From Candidatus Methylomirabilota bacterium (lineage in GTDB: Bacteria; Methylomirabilota; Methylomirabilia; Methylomirabilales; Methylomirabilaceae): DNA of 52,809 bases. The notes under the pieces are model-generated. The model made no database searches, had not been told where the DNA came from, and was given only the letters and a program-made list of their open reading frames with translations. Below, piece after piece: positions 41,381 to 45,986 of this stretch. Within the stretch, counting starts at the first letter, position 1; each line of letters starts with the position of its first letter. The position numbers and the translations under genes were made by a program. The stretch is taken from positions 1-52,809 of the forward strand of contig JACQQF010000069.1 of NCBI GenBank assembly GCA_016207095.1, given 5' to 3'.

Positions 41381-41530
41381 TTAACTCTTCGCGGTGTACT
41401 TCTCGGGCGTTTGCTCGAACGCCCGCTTGCACATCTGGGCGCAGAAATAGTAGGTCGTGCCCTGATAGACGGCGGTGGCCGCCGCCCGCTTCTCATCCAC
41501 CATCATCCCACAGACCGGATCCTTCGCCAT
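41381..41530 (-). CDS. Small YHS-domain protein
   Basis: A 49-residue protein beginning MAKDPVCGMMV, followed by AVYQGTTYYFCAQMCKRAFE and ending near PEKYTAKS. It is a complete YHS domain with three cysteines (VCGM, FCAQMC), closely resembling the N-terminal YHS domain of the CopA-type ATPase in this locus. YHS domains are found with copper and heavy-metal transporters; a metal-chaperone role is an inference. It is the last gene before the terminator. Confidence 0.85.
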   Translation of the reverse strand: MAKDPVCGMMVDEKRAAATAVYQGTTYYFCAQMCKRAFEQTPEKYTAKS

Positions 41531-41576
41531 CGCTTACTCCCACTCAGCGCCGCAGAAACCTGTGAGCGCCAGAGAT

Positions 41577-42029
41577 CTACCGGTATGGCCGAAATCGGGC
41601 GTACTTGGCGTCAATCGCCGCCTTGATCTCCGGAATCCTCTTCCTCTGCTTGTACATGGCATACGCATCCAGCGTAATGTCCTGGCAGATGTCTCACCCG
41701 AACGCGTGCCGGTCCACATAGCAGTCGAGGTTGTTCTGATGGCTATGTGACTTGTTGCACCCGCAGTAGCACGACATCTGTTCAATCAGCTCCGGCATTT
41801 CCTTAGCAACCTGATAGGCCCGTGCCGTCTTCCCCTCGAACAGCGCCGGCGAAAGCGTTGTGGGACGCGGGCGCCTCGGAATCGCCGGAAGGCCTCGACC
41901 ACCATGCTCCGCCCCGTGTGCAGCCGGGCCCCCACCAACGATCGCTTCGAGCAGGAAAGCGGCCACGCCTCCTCCCAGGACCTTAAGCACCCATCGCCTG
42001 TCAGGGTGTTGAACCGATTGCTGTTGCAT
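41577..42029 (-). CDS. Tat-exported CYCGC-motif protein with in-frame TGA (candidate selenoprotein)
   Basis: ATG at 42029 has a strong GGAGG-type Shine-Dalgarno. The N-terminus has a Tat-like DRRWVLK before a hydrophobic stretch. The mature part has ELIEQMSCYCGC, then NNLDCYVDRHAFG, as in PCYCGC-family proteins. TGA at 41694-41696 comes next. The frame then continues DICQDITLDAYAMYKQRKR for 38 residues to TAG at 41577-41579. Family members as I recall them have CxxC exactly here, so TGA occupies the first cysteine (UxxC). A weak hairpin (CCAG/CTGG, loop 41681-41673) follows 12 bases after TGA. If TGA terminates, the product is a truncated 111-residue protein. Selenocysteine decoding is not proven. 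Confidence 0.7.
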
Positions 42030-42058
42030 GTCGATCACCCCCCTCCGTGTCATTGGTA

Positions 42059-42080
42059 GGGACACGGCATGCCGTGTCCC
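42059..42080. repeat. Perfect 22-bp palindrome
   Basis: GGGACACGGCA is followed directly by its exact reverse complement. It abuts the left CTAG of element B long copy and lies 30 bp upstream of the CYCGC gene start, where it could form a strong hairpin in the leader of that gene or in the 3' part of the copA transcript. Confidence 0.85.
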
Positions 42081-42271
42081 TAGTGCCGTTCCAACTAACT
42101 TCGCTTAGCGGCATTGCTGGCCCCCAGGGCGCTCCCTGCGACGTACCACCGTATGTACGCCGGGTACCCGCAAAGTGGGTGCGGCCCTGGGGTCCGTGCC
42201 TTGCTCTGCTCGTTTCTTGGCCCGGCACGATGCCCCACTAAGTTAGAGCAAAATAGTTGGAGGAGCACTAG
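42080..42271. repeat. Element B, long copy (192 bp, CTAG-ended)
   Basis: The ends are CTAGTGCCGTTCCAACTA and TAGTTGGAGGAGCACTAG. The interior carries a large palindrome built around GGGTACCCGC with flanking CAGGGCG/CCCTGGG blocks. The right CTAG (42268-42271) contains the copA stop codon. A degenerate relative lies at 36515-36724. No gene lies in 42081-42267. Confidence 0.87.
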
Positions 42272-44793
42272 TACAGGTGGATCATGGGCCGGAAGCGTCG
42301 CAGCCGCAGCGCGTTGCCGACCACCGTGACCGAGGAGAGCGCCATGGCGGCCCCGGCCAAGACTGGGCTCAACAGCATCCCGAACACCGGATAGAGGACG
42401 CCGGCGGCTACCGGGATCAGGACGACGTTGTACGCAAATGCCCAGAACAGGTTCTGCTTGATGTTCCGCATCGTCTGTTTGCTCAATTGGAGTGCGGTCA
42501 CGACGCTTCGCAGGTCGCCGCCGATCAGGGTGATATCGGCCGCCTCCATCGCCACATCGGTCCCGGTCCCGATGGCGATCCCGACATCGGCCTGCGCCAG
42601 GGCCGGGGCATCATTGATCCCGTCGCCCACCATCGCCACCAGCTTCCCCTGCTCCTGAAGCCTTCTCACCTCTAACGCCTTGTGCTCCGGCGGGACCTCC
42701 GCCAGGACGCGATCGATCCCGACCTGTCGGGCGATCGCCTCTGCCGTCCGGCGGTTATCGCCTGTGATCATGACGACCTCGATACCCAGGCGACGCAAAG
42801 CAGCCACCACCGCCTTCGAATGCGGCTTAAGGGTGTCGGCCACAGCCACGATCCCAAGAAGCTGACGGTCTGCGGCGACAAACATCGGGGTCTTCCCCTG
42901 CCTCGAAAGCGTCTCGGCACGTTCGGCCATCCCCGCCACGTCGATGCCGCGCTCCTGCATCAGGCGACGATTGCCGAGGAGCACCTCTCTCCCTTGTACC
43001 ACGGCCCTCATCCCATAGCCCGGGATCGCCTTGAACTCTTCCGGCCCGACCAACTCGAGGCCCTCGTCCTTCGCGTGATTGACGATCGCCTCCCCAAGGG
43101 GATGCTCGGACCCCTTTTCCGCCGACGCGGCCAGCCAAAGTAAGTCGTGCGGGGTGTCCAGATCTTGCGTCGCACCTCGCACCTCGGACATTGCACTCCC
43201 TTCCTGGCCCCTCGCACCTCGCACCTCGGACCTCGCACTCAGTATTACATCGGTCACCGACGGGTGGCCCACGGTCAGCGTCCCGGTCTTATCAAAGATG
43301 AGGACGCGGGCCTGATATGCCCGCTCCAGACTCTCGGCGTTCTTAATCAGTACCCCATGCTCCGCCCCCTTCCCGGTTCCGACCATAATCGAGGTGGGGG
43401 TGGCAAGACCCAGCGCGCAGGGGCAGGCGATCACCAGGACCGCCACAAAGTTGGAGAGTGCAAACAGGAAGGACGGTTCAGGTCCGAAACGCAGCCAGAC
43501 ACCGAACGTCACGACCGCAATCACGAGGACGATCGGCACGAAGACCCCGGCGATCTTGTCCACCAGCCGCTGGATGGGCGCCTTTGAGCCCTGGGCCTGC
43601 TCCACCAGTCGGACGATCTGAGCCAGGGCGGTCTCCCGTCCAACCTTGATGGCCTCGAAGGTGAAGCTGCCTGTCTTGTTCAAGGTGGCGCCAACGACGT
43701 GATCCCCGGGGCCCTTCTCCACCGGAAGGCTCTCGCCGGTCAGCATCGACTCATCGAGTGCGGAGCGGCCCTCGCGGATGATCCCGTCCACCGGCACCTT
43801 TTCCCCGGGACGAACCAGGACGAGGTCACCGGCCCGGACCTCGTCCACCGGGATGTCATGCTCCAGGCCGCCACGGATCACCCGCGCGGTCCTGGCCTGG
43901 AGTCCCATCAGTTTCTTGATCGCCTCCGAGGTCCGACCTTTGGCCTTGGCCTCGAGCCACCGGCCCATGACGATGAGGGTCATCAGGATGGCGGCGGTGT
44001 CGTAGTAGGTCATCGCCTCCATCCCCTTCGGCGCAATAGCGGAGGGGAAAAAGGTCAGGGCGACACTGTAGAAGTAGGCGGCATTCGTGCCGATCGACAC
44101 CAGGGTGTTCATGTCGGCTGTTCGGTGTTTCAGGGTCGCCCAGAACCCCCGGTGGAACTGCCAGCCGACCCAGAATTGAATCGGCGTGGTGAGCAGCAAG
44201 AGCAAGAAGGGGTTGGATAGGACCGCCGGGGCCCATGGAAACCAGTCGGGAAAGCTCCCGAGCAGAACCGGGACGCTCAGGACCGACCCGACCAGCAATT
44301 TGGTTCGAAGGAGGCTAATCTCCGCCTCCCGTGCCGCCTCCTCTCGATCGGGCGAGCCGGACGTCGCCGCAAGTTCCACCACTCGATACCCTGCCTCCTC
44401 GATCGCCTTCCGGAAGCTGGCCGGCTCAGCGACCGAAGGAAGGTACGAAACCGTGGCACGCTCCGCGGCAAAGTTCACGTCGGCGCTCACGACGCCGGGG
44501 GTCTTCAGGAGCGCGTTCTCGATCCGTTGTACGCAGGAGGCACAGCTCATTCCCCGAATCGGGATCTCAATCTGTTTAGCGGCCCCGACCATTTCAGGCT
44601 GTTTTGGCTTGATCTCCAGCAGCCTCAATGGCGCGGCCTCGACCGCGGAACCAGATAGATAAGGACCCGGCGACTTGTCAAACGCCTCTTTGCAACCAAC
44701 CGCGCAAAAATAATAGTCTGCTCCCTTGTAGCGGCTCGTGCCGACCGCCTCCTCCGGGAGCACATCCATTCCGCAGACCGGATCTGTCGCCAT
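42268..44793 (-). CDS. copA: Copper-type P1B ATPase with N-terminal YHS and HMA domains
   Basis: The 841-residue pump has a YHS domain (residues 1-45, DPVCGMDV), one heavy-metal-associated domain (GMSCASC), eight membrane segments with the CPC motif in [14 protein letters not shown], the phosphorylation site [15 protein letters not shown], and [14 protein letters not shown]. The CPC and CsoR context indicate Cu+ export. Between DKTGTLT and SEHPLG an insert of about 25 residues ([19 protein letters not shown]) is the translation of a heptamer array. The stop TAG belongs to element B. ATG at 44793 overlaps the upstream TGA. Confidence 0.93.
43167..43240. repeat. Heptamer array inside the copA coding region
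   Basis: Two blocks of TCGCACC/TCGGACA-type units (about 43170-43197 and 43211-43238) lie in the nucleotide-binding domain part of copA and keep the frame open. The encoded residues (about 518-542) replace what is normally a short loop. Confidence 0.85.
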
Positions 44794-45986
44794 CAACGTT
44801 CTTCTTTATTCCCTTGTTTGCTGCGGACCTGCCCTCCATCGATCCGGGTACGGAGTAGCAGGTCCAAGGGCCATGGAATCTCCGCCCAGACACGGTCAGC
44901 AAACGATCTGTAGCTCTCTTCCCCCATCAATACCTTTCTGTAGAAATCGATTGCCCCGGGGCGACGCTTCAGCGCCTTGAACCACAGCCAGGGTAGCCGA
45001 TAGGCCAGGCGGCTGAGTCCGCCGGCCGCCTCCAGTTCCGGCGTGATCTCGGCCGAGATCGCCGTTTGATACCGCGCGAGGTCACCGCCATTTCGCTCGG
45101 CGCTGAGGATCGCCCTGGCCGCCAGTTGTCCGCTCAGGATCGCGTAGTAGATCCCCTCTCCAAGAAACGGATCGACGAGGGCGGCCGCATCACCCGTGAG
45201 CAGTGCGCGACCGTGATACAGCGGCGCTGAATCGCCGGCATGAAGTGGGATGAGCGCCCCGTGGGTTCGAGCTGGACTCCGGTTGCCAAAGCCGCCCGCC
45301 CCCAGGAAGGCCTCCAGACAATGAGAAGCGTTCTTCGCAGCCGTGCGGCCGACCATGGCGCCGACCGAGGCAACGTCTCGCTTCGGAAAGGCCCAGCAGT
45401 AGCCGCCGGAGGCATGGCCAAGCTCGATCACCACGCGGCCTTTGAGCGCAGCTTCAGCAACACTCGTCAATGGAAGATCTGCATCCACGCCGACAGCTCG
45501 TGCCTTTCGGCGAGCCGGGAAGAGATCCCTCGCCACAACCCCGCAGGCGCCATCCGCTCCGACCAAAAAGTCGCCGGTCTCCATCTTGCCGCTGACGTCG
45601 ACCTCGACTCGGCTGTCCACTTGCCTCACAGCCCGAACCGTCCCTCCATCACGGAGCTCGGCGCCAGCCGCAGCCGCACTCAGGCAGAGCGCCTGATCGA
45701 ACCGATCGCGCCAAACCATGTAGGCCACCGGCACCGCGAATGCCGCCTCGATCGGCTCGCGACCACGGTAGGTGAACGTCAGGCCCGTGATCCGCTCTTC
45801 GATGAGGCCAGCCGGGTCGATGTCGAGCAGCTTCTCCACGCGCCGAGACAGACATCCGCCGCAGGCCTTGTAGCGAGGCAGCCGCCGTCGCTCCAGCAGG
45901 AGCACCCTCGCGCCTGCCTTCGCCAGCCCACGGGCAGCCGTCGCCCCGGCCGGTCCGCCTCCTACCACGATCACATCGTATCGCAA
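44793..45986 (-). CDS. Geranylgeranyl reductase family FAD-dependent oxidoreductase
   Basis: This 397-residue flavoprotein has the dinucleotide motif [30 protein letters not shown], the GGR-type [14 protein letters not shown] and [14 protein letters not shown], and the second FAD motif [25 protein letters not shown]. The family reduces isoprenoid double bonds or acts as a general oxidoreductase. The frame starts at TTG 45986, with GGAGAGG five bases upstream. It lies between csoR and copA, so a metal-linked or membrane-lipid role under copper control is possible but unproven. Confidence 0.86.

What the first reader, a model, noticed from the sequence alone, without database searches (positions are those of the whole stretch)
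41577..42029. In-frame TGA at a conserved cysteine position: candidate selenocysteine in a CYCGC-family exported protein
The frame carries a Tat-like signal and CYCGC motif, then TGA (41694-41696), then 38 more codons that look like the C-terminus of the same family (DICQDITLDAYAMYK) and end in a proper TAG. From memory of PCYCGC proteins, a CxxC stands at this place, so TGA replaces its first Cys and gives UxxC, a classic redox selenocysteine arrangement. A small hairpin (CCAG/CTGG, loop beginning with G) starts about 12 nt after TGA, slightly closer than usual for bacterial SECIS elements. The downstream part shows no frameshift or extra stop. A recent TGC/TGT to TGA mutation or a sequencing error would look the same.
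Basis: partly seen in the sequence, partly recalled or inferred. Interest (0 to 1): 0.85.

Follow-up and report, generated by a model that had tools for sequence, protein, structure and literature searches.

The report
Known-family selenoprotein beside copper pump
The in-frame TGA is almost certainly a selenocysteine codon in a small exported protein of an already catalogued selenoprotein family (OS_HP4/CYCXC), here sitting between a copper-pump gene and a metal-binding YHS gene.

Summary
Confirmed and largely ordinary. The gene lies on the minus strand (42029..41577), with TGA at 41696..41694 and 38 further codons to TAG. Read through, the protein belongs to NCBIfam NF041379 "CYCXC family (seleno)protein" (OS_HP4; 123 bits, cut-off 90) and Pfam PCYCGC. 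A 2026 review already lists this family as a UxxC selenoprotein (PMC13188914). The genome carries tRNA-Sec, SelA, SelB and SelD. In the window's phylum 70 of 95 genomes have PCYCGC matches, and all 81 matches contain a TGA. Six of seven homologues read outside the phylum have Cys at that column. A hairpin 14 nt after the TGA fits the published bacterial SECIS model and, averaged over three groups, is more stable than synonymous recodings, at that place only. Function is unproven: in 7 of 7 same-genus regions fetched the gene sits between a copper-type ATPase and a YHS gene, and several Cys homologues lie in copper loci, so an exported copper-handling or thiol/selenol redox protein is the best guess. 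New member of a known selenoprotein family.

The parts
41577..42029 (-). OS_HP4/CYCXC family selenoprotein gene, 150 residues with Sec at position 112, ATG start, TAG stop
   Evidence: NF041379 123.3 bits over cut-off 90; PF13798 49 bits over cut-off 25; coordinates
41694..41696 (-). In-frame TGA read as selenocysteine (U112 of U112-D-I-C115)
   Evidence: Aligned with Cys in Bacillota and Burkholderiales homologues; TGA in all 81 phylum matches
41757..41771 (-). CYCGC motif, residues 87-91
   Evidence: C87, C89, C91, H97, C103, column 112 and C115 invariant in 14 aligned homologues (TGA read as C)
41660..41679 (-). SECIS-like hairpin, loop UGGAU at 41671..41667; loop begins 22 nt after the TGA
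   Evidence: Synonymous-recoding control and position scan, pair counts, model limits in PMC13188914 section 5
42038..42046 (-). Purine-rich GGAGGGGGG upstream of the ATG, possible ribosome-binding site
   Evidence: Read from the sequence; not tested
41381..41530 (-). YHS-domain protein, 49 aa, directly downstream
   Evidence: PF04945 59.7 bits; next to OS_HP4 in 7 of 7 same-genus regions fetched
42268..44796 (-). Heavy-metal (copper-type) P-type ATPase with N-terminal YHS and HMA domains, directly upstream; TTG start as given by the ORF tool
   Evidence: TIGR01511 636 bits over cut-off 397; PF04945, PF00403, PF00122

Best explanation
The gene encodes an exported selenoprotein of the OS_HP4/CYCXC (PCYCGC) family. 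SelB with Sec-tRNA(Sec) recodes the UGA using the hairpin 14 nt downstream, giving a UxxC pair next to a CYCGC cluster (well supported by comparison, not shown by experiment; the confidence given is for this part). The protein most likely works outside the cytoplasm as a thiol/selenol protein that binds or redox-handles copper together with the neighbouring copper-type ATPase and YHS protein (inferred from gene context only, about 50%).
For: Family: NF041379 123 bits. Machinery: tRNA-Sec 71.4 bits with TCA anticodon, SelB 367 bits, SelA 597 bits, SelD 398 bits with its own TGA. Phylum: 70 of 95 genomes, 81 of 81 matches with TGA; 74 of 75 non-duplicate phylum loci read have C.C.C...UxxC, and the other, L035, has the TGA at the same place. 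Cys at the same column in 6 of 7 homologues read outside the phylum. dN/dS 0.08 after the hairpin in 14 near relatives, against 0.10 before the TGA. Hairpin: mean excess stability of 2.4-5.4 kcal/mol over synonymous recodings only in windows starting at +12 and +18, in three groups; it meets the bSECIS limits on loop, G, spacing and energy. TGA is a normal stop for 4 of 9 neighbouring genes, so the code is not reassigned. Context: ATPase - OS_HP4 - YHS in 7 of 7 same-genus regions fetched; Cys homologues near P-type ATPases, ArsR, multicopper oxidase, CueR or DsbD.
Against: No protein or selenium data. One sequence at a time the hairpin is weak: 4 of 14, 16 of 21 and 4 of 38 sequences in the three groups beat synonymous recodings at 0.05; over 28 nt only 3 of 14 of the window's group reach -7.5 kcal/mol, 13 of 14 over 42 nt; the 42-nt stretch of the window is unremarkable against dinucleotide shuffles (z -0.51). 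Covariation rests on two pairs, and the number of such pairs is not above shuffles (212/500). Four of the 70 genomes with TGA copies (G004, G057, G076, G087) show no clear machinery at the limits used, one of them scored 100% complete, though it has a SelB-like fragment at a contig end. Copper context is not seen outside the genus: 0 of 10 regions have the ATPase.
Confidence: 0.95

Rival explanations
1. The TGA is a real stop: a recent mutation, a sequencing error or a decaying gene, with a truncated 111-residue product.
For: From one genome alone it would look the same. Decayed-looking relatives exist: a fragment at G000:C100:29239-29316 and L035 with CYCGL and a second TGA.
Against: TGA in all 81 phylum matches, same column as Cys, dN/dS 0.08 downstream among near relatives, full Sec machinery.
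Confidence: 0.02
2. TGA is read as another amino acid, by near-cognate suppression or a code change.
For: Readthrough of some kind is required by the downstream conservation.
Against: 4 of 9 neighbouring genes end in TGA; many family members themselves end in a TGA after the Sec TGA; 0 of 84 SelB matches carry a TGA; homologues have Cys here.
Confidence: 0.02
3. Function: a thiol/selenol oxidoreductase of the envelope acting on cytochromes or other redox proteins, not a copper protein.
For: UxxC is a redox-type arrangement; outside the genus one region examined (L110) has cytochrome c, Rieske and cytochrome b genes, and L112 has a cytochrome c gene; DsbD lies near the two Burkholderiales Cys forms read.
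Against: Within the genus the constant neighbours are the copper-type ATPase and YHS. No known redox fold was found, but the model is poor, so this counts little.
Confidence: 0.4

Closest known systems
CYCXC family (seleno)protein OS_HP4, NCBIfam NF041379 (Zhang and Gladyshev 2007, Olavius algarvensis symbiont, as cited in PMC13188914 and PMC9312934)
   Same: Whole domain, CYCGC, H, C, UxxC; score over the curated cut-off; UxxC and PF13798 as in the review table
   Different: Nothing essential; new host genome, and gene neighbours described here
PCYCGC motif-containing (lipo)protein, Pfam PF13798 (Bacillota, Burkholderiales)
   Same: Same domain and Cys/His pattern, 24-32% identity for the four Cys forms aligned; copper or heavy-metal neighbourhood
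   Different: Cys in place of Sec; the three Bacillota forms and the Sec-bearing long forms (L010, L018, L026, L097) have an extra loop before the UxxC/CxxC motif, absent here and in L076
E. coli fdhF SECIS (recalled, no call)
   Same: Short stem with G in the apical loop shortly after UGA
   Different: Different sequence; no E. coli copy was folded here

Membership tests
NF041379 OS_HP4 CYCXC (seleno)protein | Curated score cut-off 90 bits | tested here: met
   123.3 bits
NF041379 OS_HP4 CYCXC (seleno)protein | UxxC with the in-frame UGA (review table) | tested here: met
   U112-D-I-C115 when read through; Sec itself not shown chemically
PF13798 PCYCGC | Gathering score 25 bits and CYCGC motif | tested here: met
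   49 bits; the residue before CYCGC is Ser here and Pro in most near relatives
Bacterial selenoprotein gene | tRNA-Sec, SelA, SelB, SelD in the genome | tested here: met
Bacterial selenoprotein gene | UGA aligned with Cys in homologues | tested here: met
   6 of 7 non-phylum homologues read have Cys
Bacterial SECIS (model in PMC13188914 Fig. 2 legend) | Loop 3-9 nt, upper stem 4-16 bp, G in first two loop positions, 16-37 nt from UGA, MFE -7.5 or lower | tested here: met
   Loop UGGAU 5 nt, 4-5 bp, G second, 22 nt, -9.5 kcal/mol over 42 nt. The 20-nt core alone gives -6.0, and 11 of 14 of its group are above -7.5 over 28 nt
Bacterial SECIS (model in PMC13188914 Fig. 2 legend) | Recognition by SelB | not testable with these tools
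   Needs a binding or reporter assay
Bacterial selenoprotein gene | Selenium present in the product | not testable with these tools
   Needs 75Se labelling or mass spectrometry

The most novel reading that the evidence does not exclude
Sec 112 is a metal ligand: the protein is an exported copper chaperone or scavenger with a mixed thiolate-selenolate site, forming a three-gene copper unit with the ATPase and YHS protein, and the phylum has fixed the Sec form of this family, no intact Cys form having been found in 95 genomes.
Probability: 0.2. Interest if true: 0.5.

Novelty: new member of a known kind. Interest (0 to 1): 0.22.

Why it matters
It confirms a selenoprotein that annotation may cut at the TGA (as it is in Thermomicrobium roseum), and gives a consistent gene context (copper-type ATPase - OS_HP4 - YHS) for a family listed only as a hypothetical protein. 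That makes a copper or redox role testable. The recoding itself follows a known mechanism.

Tried and rejected
Rfam at gathering score found nothing in the window, and at E up to 10 only three chance-like hits in 41500-42100. A code change and a recent stop mutation were rejected (see rivals). A structure of the window's protein alone was poor (pLDDT 63, pTM 0.48) and Foldseek against PDB gave no match at E <= 0.001. phmmer against PDB gave two matches judged unrelated (7on8 at 2e-5, residues 78-105, no stretch passing on its own). The search for related loci in genome contigs returned one locus, a Woesearchaeota Cys form. Clustering of ORFs around the gene outside the genus was swamped by overlapping shadow ORFs; only six of its proteins were identified. 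A paper search for PCYCGC with selenoprotein gave 0, because the family is published as OS_HP4. The 2007 paper is not held, and reference 66 of the review (the 63-selenoprotein MAG) was not read.

Full report
What is there. The gene runs on the minus strand from 42029 to 41577: 111 codons from ATG, TGA (41696..41694), 38 codons, TAG. The protein is MQQQSVQHPDRRWVLK... with a twin-arginine-like start, CYCGC at residues 87-91, and U112-D-I-C115. With the TGA read as a residue it scores 123.3 bits to NCBIfam NF041379 (OS_HP4_CYCXC, "CYCXC family (seleno)protein", cut-off 90) and 49 bits to Pfam PF13798 (cut-off 25).

Sec machinery. The window's genome (G000, 2.9 Mb, 103 contigs, 94.9% complete) has one tRNA-Sec above the Rfam score (71.4 bits; TCA anticodon), SelB (367 bits), SelA (597 bits) and SelD (398 bits, itself with one TGA inside).

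Relatives in the phylum. Of 95 genomes searched with PF13798, 70 have a match. I count 81 matches, of which 77 contain one TGA and 4 two; none is without. For 3 of those 4 (G094, G074, G083) the tighter family profile counts one TGA, and the printed frames fit the second being the terminal stop after the domain; the fourth, G009 (L035), has CYCGL and a second TGA inside the domain and may be decaying. With NF041379, 83 matches were found in 70 genomes; 82 contain a TGA, and the one without is a 26-residue fragment in G000 contig C100. As a control for the search, 84 of 84 SelB matches in the same set of genomes have no stop inside. Within the genus, 13 of 14 other genomes have a match, each with a TGA; one of these (G024) is below the cut-off at a contig edge. 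Of 75 non-duplicate phylum loci that I read (the window's own gene included), 74 have C.C.C then UxxC by pattern; the exception is L035. The remaining 6 of the 81 matches were not read.

Relatives elsewhere. tblastn against plasmids gave 40 records; I fetched 6 of them. Paenibacillus, Priestia, Exiguobacterium, Paraburkholderia and Caballeronia have Cys at the TGA column, as does a Woesearchaeota contig. The Thermomicrobium roseum megaplasmid has TGA there, and its annotated gene ends exactly at that TGA; that plasmid holds neither tRNA-Sec nor SelB at the limits used, and its chromosome was not searched.

Selection after the TGA. Among 14 near relatives (13 of the genus, the window included, and G016 of the same order) the 21 codons after the hairpin have pS 0.582 and pN 0.084 (dN/dS 0.080), against 0.099 for the 25 codons before the TGA. 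The same bases read in the other two frames give pN above pS. In a second group (18 sequences of the OS_HP4 type from other genera) the value is 0.361 against 0.088, so constraint is weaker there, but pS still exceeds pN.

SECIS. A hairpin stands 14 nt after the TGA at the same place in three sequence groups: CAUUACGC-UGGAU-GCGUAUG in the window's group, GAGGCGC-UGGAY-GCGUCUC in most of the second group, CAUCACG-CGUGA-CGUGAUG in much of the long PCYCGC form. Against random synonymous recodings, 24-nt windows starting at +12 and +18 show mean excess stability of -3.0 and -3.3 (14 sequences), -2.4 and -5.4 (21), -3.2 and -2.5 (38) kcal/mol. The lowest value elsewhere between -120 and +105 is -1.6 (no sequence was dropped). 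For the window itself 0 of 500 recodings reached the observed -9.7 over 28 nt; sequence by sequence, however, only 4 of 14, 16 of 21 and 4 of 38 pass 0.05. Over 28 nt, 3 of 14, 21 of 21 and 37 of 38 reach -7.5 kcal/mol; over 42 nt, 13 of 14, 21 of 21 and 38 of 38. Dinucleotide shuffles of the window give z -0.51 for 42 nt and -2.66 for the 20-nt core. Pair counts on 35 sequences (26 distinct): 93.6% of cells paired, two pairs with double changes, covariation score 0.279 against 0.137 (0 of 500 shuffles reach it), but the number of such pairs is not above shuffles (212/500), a +2 slide scores 0.244, and the outermost pair fails in 10 sequences. In the window's group these can pair instead with a bulged U. 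[quoted passage not shown]

Exceptions. Of the 70 genomes with PCYCGC matches, 5 had neither tRNA-Sec nor SelB at the limits (G004, G055, G057, G076, G087). A looser search found SelB pieces and SelA on one contig in G055; in the others only weak SelB matches of a strength also found in all 14 control genomes, with a 70-residue SelB-like piece at a contig end in G087, and no SelA. Three of the remaining four are 76-78% complete, but G087 is scored 100%. At least one of tRNA-Sec and SelB is also present in 23 of the 25 genomes without a PCYCGC match, so machinery does not by itself predict this gene.

Context and function. In 7 of 7 same-genus regions fetched (of 14 other genomes in the genus), homologues of the copper-type ATPase, OS_HP4 and YHS stand in that order; in 0 of 10 regions from other genera is the ATPase found, though two of these regions are short (L115, L116). 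In one of those ten (L110) the nearby genes include cytochrome c, Rieske and cytochrome b proteins, and in another (L112) a cytochrome c; only five proteins of L110 and one of L112 were identified. The Cys homologues lie near heavy-metal ATPases, ArsR, multicopper oxidase, CueR and DsbD; the T. roseum copy has no metal gene in view. An exported thiol/selenol protein for copper handling or envelope redox is the best reading, by inference only. The structure model was too poor to help.

Literature. The 2026 review PMC13188914 (passages, outline and section 5 seen) lists [quoted passage not shown], with reference 60, Zhang and Gladyshev 2007. PMC9312934 (passages seen) lists OS_HP4 as UxxC. The 2007 paper was not held. 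The same review mentions a Methylomirabilota MAG with 63 predicted selenoproteins. The passages seen of PMC2398784 and PMC12013277 name other OS_HP families, not OS_HP4. [quoted passage not shown] So the recoding claim is right, and it is not new as a kind.

Noticed in passing
L097 (Thermomicrobium roseum plasmid NC_011961.1, 573004-573321): The annotated PCYCGC gene ends exactly at the TGA that aligns with Sec; the frame continues with the conserved C-terminus and a similar hairpin sequence, so it is probably a truncated annotation of a selenoprotein. No tRNA-Sec or SelB on that plasmid.
   Followed up: partly
G000:C100:29239-29316 (L077): A fragment resembling the OS_HP4 form of other genera (LYCYCECDKHQGHKSLPSCFTD) without a recognisable remainder, probably a decayed second copy.
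   Followed up: partly
L035 (G009 contig C48): Long-form PCYCGC copy with CYCGL in place of CYCGC and a second in-frame TGA, perhaps decaying or an assembly error.
   Followed up: partly
L094 and L095 (G040, G041): Long-form copies that end in a TAG 20 codons after the Sec TGA, before the usual C-terminal helix.
   Followed up: no
G000 contig C18, 30067-30990 (L073): selD itself carries an in-frame TGA, as expected of a selenoprotein SelD.
   Followed up: no
G026, G033, G034, G031: G026, G033 and G034 have a second tRNA-Sec match of 54-58 bits besides the main one; G031 has only a lower-scoring one (56.4 bits).
   Followed up: no
window 42268-44796: The P-type ATPase carries both a YHS and an HMA domain at its N-terminus, and a separate 49-residue YHS gene stands on the other side of OS_HP4.
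   Followed up: no
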